Source: Paraphaeosphaeria minitans (taxonomy: Eukaryota; Ascomycota; Dothideomycetes; Pleosporales; Didymosphaeriaceae). Taken from it: a stretch of DNA of 64,000 nucleotides. Within the stretch, counting starts at the first letter, position 1, and every line of letters starts with the position of its first letter. The translations under genes were made by a program, and so were the position numbers. The notes under the pieces were generated by a model. The model saw only the letters and a program-made list of their open reading frames with translations, was not told the origin of the DNA and ran no database searches. Below, in pieces: positions 45,899 to 55,404 of this stretch. The stretch spans positions 3,844,001-3,908,000 of the forward strand of contig WJXW01000001.1 of assembly GCA_015832175.1 (NCBI GenBank), written 5' to 3'.

Positions 45899-46501
45899 CT
45901 ACCGGTCCAGACAACTCATACACCGCGTGAGGTAATCCCGCGGCGACAATACGATCTCGCTGTCGCCTTCTCCAGGCATTGACACACTGCGCAGCGGGCT
46001 TGGTCGGTGCATCCCATTCGGATGGGGCAAGCTCCTCGGAGTAGGACTCAGCAGCTGTTGCCTGCTGGAACAGAGAGCGACCCTGGGGATCGGGCGTGCT
46101 GGTGTCATAGCATCTCCGGTCCAGTCGGGCGTCGGGCTTGGGACGGTCCTGGGTAGACTTGGTGCCGGACACGGGGAGTCCTGCATCGCTTCACGCGGGG
46201 ACGAAGGCACACTTGCTGGCTCCGGTATTGGGGGCTGCACGGCCAGACTTGTTGACGTCGTGGCAGGGCTTGGCGTCAATTCCTTGGACTGGTAGGGTTG
46301 CGCTTCATGGTTTTTGTCTTGACTTGGAGCCGTTGCTGGCGCACTGGCCACGCGCCGAGTTGAAGGGCGTCGGACTGCACTCAGTGCCAGTGTGCCGCTC
46401 TTGCGGCGTTGGATGGCGGGCGGTGGTGTCGCGTCGTCCCAGCCATCAGGTGGTAGGCTGGCGGACATGCGTCGACAATCGTTGATCAAGTTCCTGAGCA
46501 T
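45899..46501 (-). CDS. Ser/Pro-rich protein of unknown function
   Basis: An intronless frame of 200 aa starts MLRNLINDCRRMSASLPPDGW and ends in YLTRCMSCLDR. The first ~30 residues may be helical; the rest is disordered, rich in Pro, Ser, Thr and Arg, with several SP/TP sites. There is no signal peptide, membrane segment or recognised domain. It is convergent with the EXPERA gene (182 bp between stops). An additional upstream exon cannot be excluded because the frame starts abruptly after a conserved-looking splice-poor region. Length and a composition unlike its flanks support it as a gene, but not strongly. Confidence 0.5.
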   Translation of the reverse strand: MLRNLINDCRRMSASLPPDGWDDATPPPAIQRRKSGTLALSAVRRPSTRRVASAPATAPSQDKNHEAQPYQSKELTPSPATTSTSLAVQPPIPEPASVPSSPREAMQDSPCPAPSLPRTVPSPTPDWTGDAMTPARPIPRVALCSSRQQLLSPTPRSLPHPNGMHRPSPLRSVSMPGEGDSEIVLSPRDYLTRCMSCLDR

Positions 46502-47186: not shown

Positions 47187-48492
47187 TCACATGACAACGC
47201 ACCTGCACATCCCTCCTTTTTCATCCTCCGCCTTCCTCTTTTTCTTCCCACCCTCCTCAACCCTAATCACGCCGCCCTTACCCTCACTGACCATCCTCCT
47301 CCTCTCCTCCAACTCCTTTACCCCCATCGCATTCATAAACGGCCCCTCTTCCACGATCCCCCTCTTCCGCTCCATCTCGTCCCGCCCTGGCGTCGAAAAC
47401 GTGCTCGCCACGCTCCTGGCCGAGCCCTGCCGCGGCAGATGCGGCTCGACCGGGCTCGTCGTCCTCGTCCTCGTAGTCAGTGGACGCAAAGGGGGAGGCA
47501 CGTCCGAGCCGATATGCTGGGGTTGCTTCCTCCACGGTGACTGAGACGGGCTGGTGGGTAGGGGCGCTATGGAGTCGACGTCGGGCTCGTGCTCGTAGTA
47601 GGTTTCCCCGTGCTGGAAGCAGTTGCTGCCACGCCGGGCGGCGGGTCCCGTGGGGTCCATGGCGACAGCTGCGACGGGCTGCGGGACGGGCGAGCGTGGC
47701 TGGCTCGGGACATGCGGCGCGAACGGGTCTTCGGTCGGGAAAAGCGTAAACTCGCGCAGTCGCTGTCTGTCGTCCTCTGGCGCTGGGGCCGGCGGTCGGG
47801 TGGGGGCCGCTGGCATCGCGAGACCTGCCGACGCAGCGTGGCTCCCGCTTGCTGCTGCGACGACCTGCGCGCCTGGAGTCGCGGGGCTGGAGGACAGCAA
47901 CGTGCGGTGCTGGCGTGGAGCGCCCAGCTTCGAGGGTGAAATTCGGCCGGCCTTGCTGCGCTTGAGATGGCCAACGGCTTTGCTGCGTCCAGGTGCTGGG
48001 ACGGGGATGCGCGATGGTGTTGTGCGTCTGCTACGACTTTTGTTGGGACGATGATAGCTGGGCGAGTTCACGGAGCGCGCGCGAGACACGTAGCCTTGAG
48101 CGTCGTCGTCATGCTCAGCTTGTTCTTCTTGCAGTGATGTGTTAGCTTCGGGACATTTATGGTGTTGTTATGCATCTGAAGCGGTGGTCATGCGTTCCAT
48201 GTAGGTCGTCCGCGCAACTGCCTAATCGGGTGCATCGCGGGGTGCATTCGGTCTTGGACTTACCACCTGACACCAACCTTCTCTCGCCTCTGCTTGTAGG
48301 TCGCCGATCGTTGAGGGACTGCGTGTGTGCGCGGTGGCGGGGCGTCGAGTGCGTGGCGTAACCTCGTGAGAGGGCTTCGGAGAGGGAATCGGGCGAGGGA
48401 GTTACCTGCCGGATGGTCGAGCTCATGCTGTATGAGCTTACTGGGCGTTTTGGCGTTTGCGAGGCCGTGTGTGGTCGGATGTGGGTTGTCAT
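47187..48492 (-). CDS. Disordered protein with C-terminal CaaX box (CVVM)
   Basis: Two exons, 48264-48492 and 47187-48127, give 389 aa. The long exon has no ATG at its start; the 136-bp intron (donor GTAAGT, acceptor CAAG) joins LVSG to EEQAEHDDDAQGY and supplies the start MTTHIRPHTASQTP. The protein is basic, Pro/Ser-rich and mostly disordered, with a block REFTLFPTEDPFAPH and a C-terminal charged helix, GVKELEERRRMVSEGKGG. It ends with a polybasic stretch (GGKKKRKAEDEK) and MCRCVVM. The last four residues are a perfect CaaX box, with Met favouring farnesylation, and a neighbouring Cys that could be palmitoylated. Together with the basic run this is a classic plasma-membrane targeting tail. 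The body gives no enzyme signature. It is the first of three CaaX proteins on this strand. Confidence 0.75.
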
Positions 48493-48896
48493 GGCTTGGA
48501 TGCTCTGGCTTGCTGCGGCCAGAAGACGAGCGGGGGCAATTCCAGATACTGTTGGTTGTCGAGTCTGCGTGTAGAGTGCTCAATTAACAGGCACCCAACG
48601 CCTCGTGTTAGACGTTTTGTAGGGACAGAAAAGAGTTCGAGAGGCGCAGAAGCTGCACGGGTGGTTGGGTGGTTGGGGTACCAGTGAAGATAGAACCCTC
48701 GAGTGACCCGCCCCGTTGCTATGGCAAGTCAGTTTTTCAGGCTCACTCCGTGAAGCTGCACGGGCGCCACCATCCGCAAGGGCCATGATGTAGTAAACAG
48801 CATGATAAAAGCTAAGCCTGCGCAAAAGAGTCTTGTTCGGTGCGTGTGTAAACCACGTCAAACTCAACATCGATTTAACATAGATCCAACAAGCCT

Positions 48897-49181
48897 TCAT
48901 TCGCTGTATCCCGCTCCATAGCTACTACCTCTGGTGGCTCCACTTGACCTCCCCTTCGCTGAATCCGTCGTCCCAGTCCATAAGTCGTTCGTTAGCTTCT
49001 CGATGGGTGCTCCCATCTGCAGGATTGTAACCAGATATGTATCCGCGGGTGTCGCCCTGGGATCGATTGGGTCGCGCTCTGCGATGGTTACGCTGATCAT
49101 GTGCTGGACTGGCGCGCTGATGGGCATGTACATGGGAATGTACTCTGGCTCTTTACGCCTACGAGGTATTGGAAGGCACAT
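48897..49181 (-). CDS. Possible small protein or gene fragment
   Basis: A 94-codon frame contains APVQHMISVTIAERDPIDPR and ATPADTYLVTILQMGAPIEK, which read like a folded protein, then a Gly/Ser-rich tail. The N-terminal 18 residues look random, so the true 5' end may be an unrecognised exon or may be lost. There is no family assignment. The plus strand of the same stretch also has an open frame, but with a less protein-like composition. Confidence 0.35.
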   Translation of the reverse strand: MCLPIPRRRKEPEYIPMYMPISAPVQHMISVTIAERDPIDPRATPADTYLVTILQMGAPIEKLTNDLWTGTTDSAKGRSSGATRGSSYGAGYSE

Positions 49182-49626
49182 CGTTGGTACTTACTGCCCG
49201 AGGCGAATATCCTATCTGAGTAATGGCATTTGATAATAGTGGCTATGGAGGACAGGAGCAGTGTGCGAGCAGGGGCGAGAGGTCATATCGATGGACGTGG
49301 AATCATATGAATATTCATGCGTAGGCGCATGAACCAGCGTGGCAGTGATGTCACCTAGATGCTTTGCTGGAGTGTCGTGGCGGTAGCACTGTCCATCTGT
49401 TTTACGTTGTCATGTCATTGAACGTTGGTGTGATGGACGACCAAGACGTTTATTGCAAAATAGCGAAACAACGATAAGTTGTAAGAAGTTGGACCTCCCC
49501 ATCTTCAGTTTGCATAAGGATTATAGTAAGCTCCTGAAAGTCACGTTAGCAAGTGCAATGACTCTGGGTACTCCCCAGAAGACTAGCAACTGACTGTGAC
49601 TCTATATATGGCAGCGCTGAGGAAAC

Positions 49627-49656
49627 CTTTGATGATCTGGGCACAGATCATCAAAG
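49627..49656. other. Perfect 13-bp hairpin
   Basis: CTTTGATGATCTG, a four-base loop GGCA, then CAGATCATCAAAG. The stem has no mismatch. It lies in non-coding DNA, not beside any supported gene end. Confidence 0.85.
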
Positions 49657-50205
49657 ACTCGGTGGCGCTTACTTGAACTGTACAGGAAGAGGTAACGAGG
49701 GTGTATAGAATGGCCTCACTTCCAGCTTACAGCAATACAATCCAACCCGCGGCGGGTGATGCAGCTCGAGAAGGGCTCATTGCGTGTCGCGTTTCCAATG
49801 TCACCGTTGCACGGGACGGTGAACTTTCGAGAGGTAGTTCCAACTTTGTAAGTGCAGTTGCCCGATTTTACGAGTGCAAGGAGTAGGATAGACGATTGAT
49901 TACGGAAGCCACGTTTACCTCGTTTTGGAAGGCACTACATGAAGGCATGAAACGTTTCCGTGCAGTTTGCGCAGCAACCGGGTTGGAAGTAGCGTTTTGC
50001 GATGCGGTAATAACCGATTGTCTGAGTTACATCAATCCGATGGTCCAGCAAATCGAGGGGTCGAGAAACACTTCTTCGTGGGAATGTTCAATGCTTTCTT
50101 CATGGAGCACTCCATTCCCTCGTAGGATAGGTACGCCAACACAACCTTGAGACTTGGCACAACCTGTCAAGCACGATGTGAAGGTTTTAGTCTTCTGTTC
50201 TCAGC

Positions 50206-50460
50206 TCAGCTAATGCCGACACTGATTGCCTGCTTCATAGGACTCGTCTGTGCGAGCTGTATATCCTCACCGAAGAAGTATGATTGGCAGGTAATGAGCA
50301 AAGGGCGTTCATTGGCATAATCTACTTGACCGCCGTTATTCATGCACACGAATTTTTCATAGCAGTAGCCCCGGTTGCACAGTTCTTCCACTCGCGGCGC
50401 GGTGAAGACATAACCATTCAGCATCGACTCTATCATGAGCAGGGTGGCGTTCAACGTCAT
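50206..50460 (-). CDS. Possible small cysteine-containing protein or exon
   Basis: An 84-codon frame with four cysteines in 42 residues: ELCNRGYCYEKFVCMNNGG and LLITCQSYF. It lacks a signal peptide of its own, so it could be an internal exon of a secreted protein, or a relic. No family is recognised. Confidence 0.3.
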   Translation of the reverse strand: MTLNATLLMIESMLNGYVFTAPRVEELCNRGYCYEKFVCMNNGGQVDYANERPLLITCQSYFFGEDIQLAQTSPMKQAISVGIS

Positions 50461-51035
50461 CAACTACCGATCAGGAGCAACGTAGTGTGAAGAGGCAGAA
50501 ATGCAATAGTATTTGCAACCTTGATATGAAATGTACTGTAGTTTAAAGAAACAAATAACATTCTGAATATTTTCTCGTTTCTGAGTGTTCGACAACCACT
50601 AATGCCAACGATGTGGTCTTACTCACTGTGAAGAGCGTCCATAGTTCGAGGATCGATCATGCCTTCTGCGAGGATCATTCTCGAGGCCACGGTCATCCCC
50701 TACTACGCGATTTTGTGTACGCTGCAAATTTCCACAGCTTGAAACTCTATAGGTAACCGAACACGATGTACGATTCATGGAGCACACGATCTTAGACTTC
50801 AATATATATCCTCGACACTATCGACGCCATCGATGTTAGCCTACCGTTCGTCTCATGCAGGCTGCTCAACATTCCAGCCCACTCTAGATCGTGCATTAGG
50901 TAGAGCCAGCTACCGCTAGTGAAAGCCACCACCTACTACTGCAGGTACCGAAACTAGACTACCTACCTACCGGCCGCGAGCTAGGTACCTACCTGGGGCG
51001 GGCTTGCGATCTGCAAACTACCTCGAGTGACAAAT

Positions 51036-51947
51036 TCACATCACGATGCAGCACCCAGCCACCTCCTTTTCAGCCATGCTCTTCTGCAGCTTCTTCGAGT
51101 CGAGGTACTTGGGCTCGACCGGCGGGGGCTGAGGCAGCTTTGCGCGGAGGTTGACGGTTTGCTTGGCTCGCAGCGCCATCATGTCCGCTCTGAACTGACC
51201 ATCCCGCTTCGAGACCCGTTCCTGCGGGAAGAGTGAGTACATTTCTTGTGCACGTGGACGCGGAGCCAGCGGAGGACCACGGCGCTTCCCTGGCTCTGCC
51301 CGGCGCAGATGCGATGGGTCGGGGAGCTTGACCGTCTGATGGGGCCCATATGCAATCACCCCTAGTACTCTAGATCCATTGTCCTGCTGGGGTGGTGCTT
51401 CGTGTTGCGTCTGAGCGCGCAAATGCGTACGCGAAGGCTTCCGTGGATGTTGTTGCACACGCTGCGAATGCGAGAAGTTCCTAGGTGCACGCTGTGGACG
51501 CGAGAAGTTCCTAGGCGCACGCACGCTCCTGTCAGAGTTGTGGGTCATCAGATCGTCTTGCTCATGCAACACTTGCTGTGGGGTTACTACTAGGTACTGC
51601 AAAGATCGCTGGGAAGATTTTATACACATCGTGAACTGGATTGCATGCATTGTTGGAGCATTGTCTACGGCACAGGGAGAAAAGGTCATGCATTCTTTCC
51701 GCAACAATGCGAAGGCAACTACTGAACAAAGACGCCTTGTACACTCTCTCACATGACTGTACACTTGGGACCCCAGTCTTTGGCGCTCTTCATAGTAACG
51801 TTTTTTTTTTGGCCACGGATGCTGATGGTGTTCTCGTGGGGTATTTGTGGATGGTAATCGTCTGAAAGGGTCCTCCTTCACCGATCGTCCTAAATAATCA
51901 CGGTAGTGTAGTTCTAGATACTGGGTTATTTTCGGTGATGAAGCCAT
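51036..51947 (-). CDS. Basic disordered protein with C-terminal CaaX box (CIVM)
   Basis: The frame of 303 aa ends KSMAEKEVAGCCIVM. The last four residues are a CaaX box preceded by a second Cys, a prenylation plus palmitoylation layout as in Ras. The C-terminal ~170 residues look authentic: two tandem copies of QRAPRNFS-type repeats, VLGVIAYGPHQTVKLPDP, AQEMYSLFPQERVSKRDGQF, RADMMALRAKQTVNLRAKLPQ. The N-terminal part (MASSPKITQYLELHYRDYLG to the Met at MTHNSDRS) contains a stretch with splice-like TTTGCAG and irregular composition, so the true start may be the internal Met near 51549 or an upstream exon. It is the second in the CaaX series; no catalytic domain is present. Confidence 0.65.
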   Translation of the reverse strand: MASSPKITQYLELHYRDYLGRSVKEDPFRRLPSTNTPREHHQHPWPKKKRYYEERQRLGSQVYSHVRECTRRLCSVVAFALLRKECMTFSPCAVDNAPTMHAIQFTMCIKSSQRSLQYLVVTPQQVLHEQDDLMTHNSDRSVRAPRNFSRPQRAPRNFSHSQRVQQHPRKPSRTHLRAQTQHEAPPQQDNGSRVLGVIAYGPHQTVKLPDPSHLRRAEPGKRRGPPLAPRPRAQEMYSLFPQERVSKRDGQFRADMMALRAKQTVNLRAKLPQPPPVEPKYLDSKKLQKSMAEKEVAGCCIVM

Positions 51948-52220
51948 CGGACGACAGACATGCGTGTGTCGAGAATTCTAACGCTAGGTCGCGAAACCGA
52001 TGGGCGACGACTATGGTAGGAGAAACTGTGGATTCTATCCAGAGCTTGGAGAATCTAGTACGGAAGTAGCGAGTACCTATAAACAATGTGCGTGGGGTAG
52101 ATCATTGCACTGTTGTCATCGTCCGTGTGAACCCAGAACCTTGTGACTCGCGAATATAGTGAACAGAACTCGATCAACCCATTCACCGTCTTAAAGAGGC
52201 TTGAACATTAATAAGAGTAA

Positions 52221-52760
52221 TCACATGAAGCAACAACTCTTGCTCGGCTTCCTGTCATCCTCTTTTGTCGAATCATTACTAAAATGACTCTGGGGCTGTT
52301 CAACCGTCTCCTCCTTCGAGATCTCAAGCACTTCTTCGTGTCGCCTTCGCGCTGGTCTCTCCCAGTGAGCCACGTAAACAGAGTCTTGCTTCTGCGGCGG
52401 CGTGAAGTACTCAGCTTCCACGTGCAGAGACGTATGGGGTCGAGTGTGTGACACAGCAGCATTTCTCTCGCGTCCCGGTCCCTCGACCCACACGGCTTTC
52501 TGATTCTGCATTGCTGGCAAAAGCGTCGCAGGCAACGGTTTCTCGGGCAACGGCTTGGTAAATCGGCGATCGAAATTTCTTCGATTTATGTTCAGGGTCC
52601 GTACGAGACCTGTTAAAAGTTTCGTCTCGCCGTCAGGGTAGTGCCGGGGCTCTTCAGTGATGGAGGAGAGTGGGCGTCTGGGGACCAGCCTATGTCTAGG
52701 GCTGTTGGCATGTTTGTGCGAAAAATGCTTTCTAGTGAGGCGAGTTTTGTTAAGAGGCAT
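52221..52760 (-). CDS. Small basic protein with C-terminal CaaX box (CCFM)
   Basis: An intronless frame of 179 aa starts MPLNKTRLTRKHFSHKH. It is rich in Arg, His, Lys and Pro, with PLPEKPLPATLLPAMQNQ, QDSVYVAHWERPARRRHEE and a C-terminal acidic-to-basic transition KEDDRKPSKSCCFM. The final CCFM fits CaaX, with Met at X and a Cys at the next position. There is no signal peptide or transmembrane segment, so the tail would be the only membrane anchor. It lies 273 bp upstream of the start of the preceding CaaX frame, same strand. Sequence similarity to the other two CaaX proteins is not visible beyond composition and the tail. Confidence 0.65.
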   Translation of the reverse strand: MPLNKTRLTRKHFSHKHANSPRHRLVPRRPLSSITEEPRHYPDGETKLLTGLVRTLNINRRNFDRRFTKPLPEKPLPATLLPAMQNQKAVWVEGPGRERNAAVSHTRPHTSLHVEAEYFTPPQKQDSVYVAHWERPARRRHEEVLEISKEETVEQPQSHFSNDSTKEDDRKPSKSCCFM

Positions 52761-54122: not shown

Positions 54123-55404
54123 TTACCAGCCCTCGTCCTTCTGGTTCTTGCCCTCGTCGTTTTTCAGCGCCTGCTTCTCTTCGTCGGACAGCTCGATCAT
54201 TTCAGCGCCTTGCAGTCGGTAGCTGCCCTTGGCATTGACTATGTGATCTCCGCCGGACTTGTGATAGAGCTGGTGCAGTCTCGGTACGAAGTACTGCATG
54301 ACTTGGTCGCTGAGCGCCTTCGAGACGAGGCCCTTGTTCACCCAGTAGTGGCGCACAAAGGTTCCTTTGCAGCCACCTCGATTCTCGGCTTCTGGTGCGC
54401 CATTCGCCTCTACGCAAGGCAGCACTTTGACGTCCTCGGGGCGGTCAAAGTTGTAGCGGATGTAGTTGCCGAACGCGGCCTGCTCGTGGAACATCTCGAG
54501 CTTCCACTTCTCGCAGCCTGGGTAGCGTCCTTCGTCAGGACACTCGGCCCACACTTTGAACATGTCCTGCGTGCGTTCGCTCTGCTGCGCAATGACGAAG
54601 CCGGTGTTGAGATAGCGGTTTCCTCGTGAATCGTAGTTTTGCGGCTCGTCGGGGTCGAGCGACATCATGATGAGGGTTTCCTTGGTCATATTCCAGTAGT
54701 TGAGCAGCCACTCGAGCGGAAGGTGCGGAAAGTGGAGCATAACGTCCGAGTCCATAAAAAGGACGTAGTCGTGAGTCTTGAGGGCCTCTTTCATCACGGG
54801 CACCTTGACCCAGGTGCCCCAGCGGTCTTCGTAGTCGGGAGCGCGTACGAACTTGTAGTCGTAACCGTGGATCATAGCATAGGTATAGTGACTCAGCATG
54901 CCGGCCGACAAGGCTCGAATGCCGTCACCACCCTTCCACACAAGTTCGTCGTCCATGAGCTGCCCCGGCTTGTTCAAAGGCCGGCTATCAATGTCCAAGA
55001 CCAAGACCTTCTTCCCCAGCTTTTGCTTGAAGCGCGGTTCGCCGTGCAGGCGGTACACCTGTCCTTCGTCGTCGGTAAAATTTGCGGCGGTGACCGGGTG
55101 TAGTATCGGCTCGTAGAGGGCTTTGACAACGGCGGCCATGGAGGTATCGCCTTCGGGGATGGATACGTTGTGCTGATAAGGGTATCTGGTGCGTACTTAG
55201 ATTCGGAGCTGTTCAGGACACAGAGCTGTGGGAAACGTACTGCGAGCCCTTGTACAAAGGCATCGCACTCGGTTCAAATGCAATGTAGACGAAGGCGCAT
55301 AGCATCGGGATCAGGGCGATCAGAAGGATGCGTCGCCATCGCGCGTGAGGCCCGGAGGCCATGTTGGCTAGCGAGGTGTAGGCATAGTTGGTGTTCGCAG
55401 ACAT
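54123..55404 (-). CDS. GMA12/MNN10-family galactosyl/mannosyltransferase
   Basis: Two exons, 55241-55404 and 54123-55185, give 408 aa. The N-terminus MSANTNYAYTSL is followed by a signal-anchor helix (about residues 26-44, ILLIALIPMLCAFVYIAF), the type II topology of Golgi glycosyltransferases. The luminal part contains KVLVLDIDSRP, MIHGYDYKFVRA, RWGTWVKVPVM and the metal-binding DxD in LFMDSDVMLHF (Asp200-Ser-Asp202), then YLNTGFVIAQ, HEQAAFGNY and FVRHYWVNKG. The acceptor at 55185 gives KGSQYPYQHNVSIPEGD in frame; the more obvious TCAG two codons later shifts the frame. It transfers galactose or mannose from a nucleotide sugar to glycans in the secretory pathway, for the cell wall or glycoproteins; the sugar is not certain. 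Confidence 0.9.

What the first reader, a model, noticed from the sequence alone, without database searches (positions are those of the whole stretch)
47187..52760. Three consecutive minus-strand genes end in CaaX prenylation boxes
The proteins starting at 48492, 51947 and 52760 end MCRCVVM, AGCCIVM and SKSCCFM. Each has Cys at position -4, Met at the last position (farnesyl preference) and a second Cys next to the box. Each stops with ATG TGA. All three are otherwise basic, disordered and without enzyme domains, so none is a Ras/Rho GTPase, Ste18-type gamma subunit or mating pheromone of known form. A CaaX terminus is rare, so three adjacent ones suggest a local family of membrane-tethered proteins or a functional cluster. 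By eye I cannot align their bodies, so they may be very diverged paralogues or unrelated.
Basis: partly seen in the sequence, partly recalled or inferred. Interest (0 to 1): 0.75.

Follow-up and report, generated by a model that had tools for sequence, protein, structure and literature searches.

The report
Fungal lipid-tail proteins, three neighbours
Three neighbouring fungal genes end in a signal for attaching a fat-like anchor; one belongs to a conserved family that keeps this signal in related fungi, one has a single known relative that also keeps it, and the third is an orphan, with no sign that the three are one family.

Summary
The window is Paraphaeosphaeria minitans DNA. The three C-termini (MCRCVVM, AGCCIVM, SKSCCFM) are present as described. 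Gene 1 (48492-47187, one intron) belongs to an apparently undescribed, single-copy family seen in seven families of Pleosporales. Of 31 database members (own species included), 28 end in CxxM; Cys -4 and Met -1 are invariant in those 28, and 27 of 28 carry a second Cys just upstream. All 31 share GRDE[ML]ERK...GPF ahead of the end. One of the three exceptions is a gene model run into its neighbour. The box is therefore conserved and most likely directs prenylation (probably farnesylation) plus a second lipidation, as in Ras tails. Gene 2 (51947-51036) has one relative found outside the species, in Karstenula, with a conserved C-terminal third and CCILM. Gene 3 (52760-52221) has a coding-like codon score but no relative found, and one public model splices it onto gene 2, removing its CaaX stop. 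No homology was detected among the three bodies. A functional cluster is possible but untested. Verdict: observation confirmed; interpretation partly supported, strongly for gene 1, fairly for gene 2, weakly for gene 3. Prenylation itself was not tested.

The parts
47187..48127 (-). Gene 1, exon 2: basic, disorder-prone body, FTLFPTEDPF motif, module FSTPGRDEMERKR...EGPF...ELEERRRMVSEG, ends MCRCVVM, stop TGA
   Evidence: 21 of 31 relatives aligned
48264..48492 (-). Gene 1, exon 1: conserved start MTTHIRPHTA...STIRxVTPSPDSLSEAL
48128..48263 (-). Gene 1 intron (136 bp, GTAAGT...CAAG)
   Evidence: same junction in P0003
51036..51530 (-). Gene 2, 3' coding part; conserved YSLFPQERVSxRxxQFRADMMALxAxQTVNLRAKL, ends AGCCIVM, stop TGA; exact exon start unresolved
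51753..51947 (-). Gene 2, possible first exon (MASSPKITQ...YYEERQRLGSQ)
   Evidence: best codon score of its six frames, though slightly negative; suggestive match to Karstenula N-terminus, 29 of 500 shuffles as good
51531..51752 (-). Probable intron inside the 303-aa frame of gene 2; boundaries not fixed
   Evidence: no coding score, no match to relative
52221..52760 (-). Gene 3: 179-aa orphan ending SKSCCFM, stop TGA; spliced onto gene 2 in one public model
   Evidence: positive codon score in both halves; P0001; no relative outside the species (only its last 96 aa were searched there)
45899..46501 (-). Downstream neighbour of gene 1 (CRRMSASLPPDGWDD...), with a counterpart next to the gene 1 relative in Didymella exigua

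Best explanation
Gene 1 encodes a member of an apparently undescribed, single-copy, largely disordered protein family of Pleosporales. It has a Ras-like lipidation tail: a CaaX Cys (mostly CVVM or CAVM) prenylated, most likely by the ordinary protein farnesyltransferase, then aaX removal and methylation, and a second Cys, usually at -8 or -6, that is palmitoylated, locking the protein on the plasma membrane or an endomembrane. The conserved segment of about 40 residues ahead of the tail (GRDE[ML]ERK...GPF...DLExRRRxVSEG) would then act as a membrane-proximal docking or regulatory module, and the S/T-P-containing body as a phosphorylation-controlled linker. Gene 2 is a second, unrelated protein of the same layout (CC-aaM tail). 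Gene 3 is a lineage-restricted reading frame with the same type of end, probably a small gene of its own but possibly part of gene 2's transcript. Shown: sequence, conservation of the box in genes 1 and 2, presence of prenyltransferase-family genes. Inferred: lipidation, location, docking role.
For: Gene 1: 31 relatives including its own species, E 2e-245 to 9e-4; 28 of 31 end CxxM, Cys -4 and Met -1 invariant in those 28, V/I/L/M at -2 in 28 of 28, second Cys within 8 residues upstream in 27 of 28, GRDE[ML]ERK then GPF in 31 of 31. Column entropy is 0, 0.81, 1.99 and 0 bits at -1 to -4, against 1.99-2.75 at -9 to -15. Members lie in seven Pleosporales families, six of them with a box-bearing member (one member placed by its genus). 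Gene 2: Karstenula relative 67% identical over 25% of the query, ending CCILM. Six PF00432 matches group into three places in the genome, as expected for the beta subunits of FTase, GGTase-I and Rab GGTase (the assignment to enzymes is recalled). Of four CC-[xTx]2-M-(TAA/TGA) sites in the genome (reversed control: 2) one is gene 2 and one ends a frame that I recognise by eye as a Rho-type GTPase. In A. fumigatus RasA palmitoylated cysteines beside the CAAX box give the second membrane signal (PMC5879109, passages seen).
Against: Three of 31 relatives lack the box: P0009, P0018, P0029; P0018 runs on into the next gene, the other two are unexplained (P0029 shows no such match). No lipidation, localisation or expression data were available. 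Met-ended boxes can also be GGTase-I targets (PMC9231725, passage seen), so farnesyl is not certain. Gene 3 has no relative found and a2 = Phe is not a classical aliphatic. One public model splices out gene 3's stop. The codon score is a weak witness: it ranks a wrong frame first for gene 1's confirmed exon 1.
Confidence: 0.7

Rival explanations
1. The three genes form a functional cluster of co-regulated, co-localised prenylated scaffold proteins, perhaps very old diverged paralogues.
For: Three adjacent real CaaX genes are improbable (about 0.0003 expected at the A. fumigatus rate, about 0.01 at a 1% rate). Genes 1 and 2 both carry [FY][ST]LFP upstream of the box: of 94 CxxM-type sites on contigs C1 and C2 only these two have it within 600 bp, against about 0.22 expected.
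Against: No homology between bodies by BLASTP (gene 3 against the rest), hhalign or shuffles. The LFP motif was noticed after the fact, is absent from gene 3, and is found in only 6 of the 31 gene 1 relatives. If gene 3 is not a gene, two adjacent CaaX genes are expected 0.1 to 1.4 times per genome. The neighbourhood of genes 1 and 2 in other species could not be examined.
Confidence: 0.2
2. Genes 3 and 2 are one gene: a transcript splices from gene 3's last codons into gene 2, so gene 3's CaaX is an accident of the exon end, leaving two CaaX genes.
For: P0001 (PMIN01_01155) is exactly this model.
Against: Its intron would be about 700 bp with a GTGATT donor (read; that this is long and weak for such a fungus is recalled); another strain's model P0034 has gene 2 without gene 3; the Karstenula relative shows no match to gene 3; a CCFM end exactly at the stop would be a coincidence.
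Confidence: 0.25
3. Gene 3 is a non-coding or recently born frame and its CaaX end is chance.
For: No relative found; Phe at a2; the codon score that favours it also errs on a confirmed exon.
Against: In-frame codon score positive in both halves and above all five other frames; part of it is annotated as coding. Its N-terminal 83 residues were not searched in the large database.
Confidence: 0.25

Closest known systems
Fungal Ras (e.g. A. fumigatus RasA) hypervariable tail
   Same: CaaX box with Cys residue(s) just upstream for a second lipidation
   Different: No GTPase domain match; body disorder-prone and unrelated
Ascomycete a-type pheromone precursors
   Same: CaaX end
   Different: 179-389 aa instead of a short precursor (precursor size recalled); gene 1 has a conserved module upstream
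G-protein gamma subunit (Ste18 type)
   Same: CaaX end with neighbouring Cys (recalled)
   Different: No G-gamma domain match
Pal1 family (a UniRef name attached to relative P0004)
   Same: Database label only
   Different: No Pfam match listed for P0004 even with the limit set to E 10

Membership tests
CaaX (farnesyl-type) proteins | C-terminal C-a-a-X conserved among orthologues | tested here: met
   gene 1: 28 of 31 including its own species; gene 2: 1 of 1 relative outside the species
CaaX (farnesyl-type) proteins | same for gene 3 | tested here: inconclusive
   no relative found; only its last 96 aa searched in the large database
CaaX (farnesyl-type) proteins | prenyl group on the Cys in vivo | not testable with these tools
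   needs labelling, mass spectrometry or localisation
Ras/Rho GTPases | G domain | tested here: not met
   no such Pfam match in the three proteins or in 21 of the 31 gene 1 relatives scanned
G-gamma (Ste18) | G-gamma domain | tested here: not met
   no such Pfam match
Short a-type pheromone precursor | very short precursor | tested here: not met
   389 aa, 303 aa as one frame and 179 aa
Pal1 | Pal1 domain | tested here: not met
   P0004 has no Pfam family listed at E up to 10; 21 relatives scanned at E up to 1 show none
One paralogous family of genes 1-3 | homologous bodies | tested here: not met

The most novel reading that the evidence does not exclude
Pleosporales carry a conserved non-GTPase, dually lipidated disordered scaffold family (gene 1), and in Paraphaeosphaeria it sits in a genomic cluster of sequence-unrelated prenylated proteins that work together at one membrane: a 'prenylated-protein gene cluster', a kind of cluster not seen in the listings of the nine literature searches made here.
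Probability: 0.15. Interest if true: 0.75.

Novelty: new member of a known kind. Interest (0 to 1): 0.42.

Why it matters
Knowledge of the fungal prenylome is described as limited and centred on Ras and Rho proteins (PMC6550545, passage seen). A conserved CaaX family without a known domain, seen in seven Pleosporales families, is a clear candidate for farnesyltransferase-dependent effects that Ras and Rho do not explain. The conservation of the box gives a simple test by tagging and Cys-to-Ser exchange.

Tried and rejected
Paralogy of the three bodies: BLASTP of gene 3 against P0003, P0002 and gene 2 (best E 0.26), hhalign (21 of 31 gene 1 relatives in the profile; best E 0.019 and probability 2.4%, over 12 columns of the tail) and shuffles, all negative for the bodies. 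A fourth box, KCTVM at 51749 in another frame of gene 2's first exon: taken as chance because the main frame there (YYEERQRLGS) resembles the Karstenula N-terminus (suggestive only, 29 of 500 shuffles). PIN_4 (E 0.13) and DUF7514 (E 0.014) hits are below the curated cut-offs; weak Pfam hits in gene 1 relatives (best DUF3563, E 0.011, 3 of 21) were taken as chance. A UBX-protein match in solved structures (E 0.0093) covers profile positions 36-144 and was taken as compositional chance. NCBIfam gave nothing for six proteins, but it is made for bacteria and archaea. Pal1 label rejected. Repeat origin of the stretch between genes 2 and 1: no second copy. A promoter scan is for bacteria and uninformative here. 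Literature: nine searches; the listings were cut (20 of 23; 15 of 33; 10 of 237), and I judged by title and start of abstract; papers opened, for passages only: PMC9231725, PMC6550545, PMC12778737, PMC5879109, PMC6715606.
Full report
Where it is. The window is contig C1:3844001-3908000 of a 47.45-Mb assembly. The annotated protein PMIN01_01155 of Paraphaeosphaeria minitans matches it at 100% over 54% of the gene 2 query and sits on a contig of the same length, 5,154,056 bases. The species is a Dothideomycete of the order Pleosporales, family Didymosphaeriaceae.

Observation. The three minus-strand frames, their last seven residues and their ATG TGA stops are as described. Gene 1 has an intron at 48263-48128 (GTAAGT...CAAG). 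The protein annotated in another strain, P0003, has the same junction and lacks four residues elsewhere. In gene 3 the second Cys is inside the box.

Gene 1 is a conserved family. A database search returned 31 proteins at E up to 1, the weakest 9e-4; only the 7992 candidates sharing most words were scored, so more may exist. One of the 31 is the own-species protein. Sixteen carry an organism name; 13 of these 16 end in the box. I looked up six of these species besides P. minitans; they lie in Pleosporales, in Pleosporaceae, Didymellaceae, Trematosphaeriaceae, Dothidotthiaceae, Massarinaceae and Lentitheciaceae. The Lentitheciaceae member (P0009) lacks the box, and in Didymellaceae the species looked up (P0018) lacks it while P0019 of the same genus has it. 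Twenty-eight of 31 end in CxxM: CVVM 12, CAVM 6, CLVM 3 and seven others once each; 27 of these 28 have another Cys within eight residues upstream. In these 28, Cys -4 and Met -1 never vary and -2 is V in 24 and otherwise I, M or L; entropy is 1.99 bits at -3 and 1.99-2.75 bits at -9 to -15. All 31 contain GRDE[ML]ERK followed by GPF, 57-76 residues from the end in the CaaX-ending members. The N-terminal THIRPHTA...PSPDSLSEAL is shared by most of the 21 members aligned. The gene is single-copy here: the only hit elsewhere is at E 0.46.

Exceptions. P0009, P0018 and P0029 lack the box. P0018 (Didymella exigua) runs on into a sequence that matches the window's next gene downstream of gene 1 (50% over 32 residues, pairwise E 2e-9). 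This indicates that the gene model skips the stop, and also that the order gene 1 - CRRxSAxLPPDGW gene is shared by Didymellaceae and Didymosphaeriaceae (one case). P0029 shows no such match.

Gene 2. One relative outside the species was found, P0002 of Karstenula rhodostoma (same family). It aligns to the C-terminal third (score 264 against a shuffle mean of 34, 0 of 500 as good) and ends CCILM. The 5' half of the frame is uncertain: aa 1-65 has the best codon score of its six frames, though slightly negative, and a suggestive match to P0002 (29 of 500 shuffles as good); aa 66-139 has neither. Two public models of the gene disagree with each other and with this frame upstream, but both keep CCIVM.

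Gene 3. Codon scores were trained on seven large frames of the window, three of which match Pfam; the other four were not checked. In frame, gene 3 scores positive in both halves and above the other five frames. The score is a weak witness: gene 1's confirmed exon 1 scores -0.075 in frame against 0.025 for a wrong frame. No relative outside the species was found, but only its last 96 residues, as part of P0001, were searched in the large database; in the own genome it is single-copy. P0001 joins it to gene 2 by splicing from within its last codons. The implied intron is about 700 bp with a GTGATT donor, so I consider separate genes more likely, but this is not shown.

Not one family. Gene 3 shows no homology to P0003, P0002 or gene 2 by BLASTP (best E 0.26). 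hhalign of the three gives at best probability 2.4% (E 0.019), over 12 columns of the tail only. Shuffles find none of the pairs above chance (131 to 396 of 500 shuffles as good). Genes 1 and 2 share [FY][ST]LFP upstream of the box; on contigs C1 and C2, 2 of 94 CxxM-type sites have this within 600 bp and these are the two, against about 0.22 expected. The pattern itself is barely above its reversed control (325 against 284), was noticed after the fact, and is present in only 6 of the 31 gene 1 relatives.

Chance. C-x-[ILMV]-M-(TRR) occurs 440 times against 364 for the reversed control, and a same-strand triple is expected about 0.1 times per genome. Of four CC-type boxes in the genome (control 2), two end short frames (32 codons, opposite a 575-codon frame, and under 30 codons), one ends a frame I recognise by eye as a Rho-type GTPase and one is gene 2. 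Conservation, not adjacency, is what makes the boxes of genes 1 and 2 credible.

Mechanism. Six PF00432 matches group into three places, fitting the usual three prenyltransferase beta subunits (recalled). Boxes ending in Met are classically farnesylated, with cross-specificity (PMC6550545, passages seen), and Met is also among GGTase-I's end residues (PMC9231725, passage seen). In RasA, palmitoylation beside the CAAX box gives the second membrane signal (PMC5879109, passages seen). The tail of gene 1 relatives such as CGMRCVVM has the same arrangement. Farnesyl plus palmitoyl anchoring of a disordered scaffold with a membrane-proximal conserved module is therefore my explanation; anchoring is inferred from conservation, the scaffold role is a guess from composition and the conserved module.

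Known or not. No Pfam match above a curated cut-off was found for the three proteins, P0001, P0002 or P0004, nothing better than E 0.011 in 21 of 31 gene 1 relatives, and no NCBIfam match in six proteins (a library for bacteria and archaea). The UniRef label Pal1 on one relative is not supported. Nine literature searches listed no paper that, by title and start of abstract, describes the family or a cluster of prenylated-protein genes (three listings were cut). The kind, CaaX-tailed protein, is well known; the gene 1 family appears undescribed.

Noticed in passing
window 48492-48264 (gene 1 exon 1): Another P. minitans strain's protein (P0003) lacks four residues (SEAL), which would be a 12-bp difference between short direct repeats.
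   Followed up: partly
window 45899-46501, minus strand: Proline-rich frame with CRRMSASLPPDGWDD; a counterpart follows the gene 1 relative in a Didymella exigua model, so this gene pair may be an old neighbourhood.
   Followed up: partly
window 51749-51877, minus strand: A second frame inside gene 2's possible first exon ends KCTVM and stop; probably chance.
   Followed up: partly
P0001, P0034, P0018: Public gene models in this neighbourhood look unreliable: P0001 fuses genes 3 and 2, P0034 lacks the conserved YSLFPQ, P0018 runs into the next gene.
   Followed up: partly
window 54123-55196, minus strand: Likely glycosyltransferase (Nucleotid_trans and GMA12/MNN10 matches), upstream neighbour of gene 3.
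   Followed up: no
window 50206-50463, minus strand: An 85-aa frame between genes 2 and 1 with a positive codon score but no Pfam match.
   Followed up: partly
G000:C1:2620387-2620547: Eight sites at 21-bp spacing whose minus strand reads FSLFP, apparently a tandem repeat.
   Followed up: no
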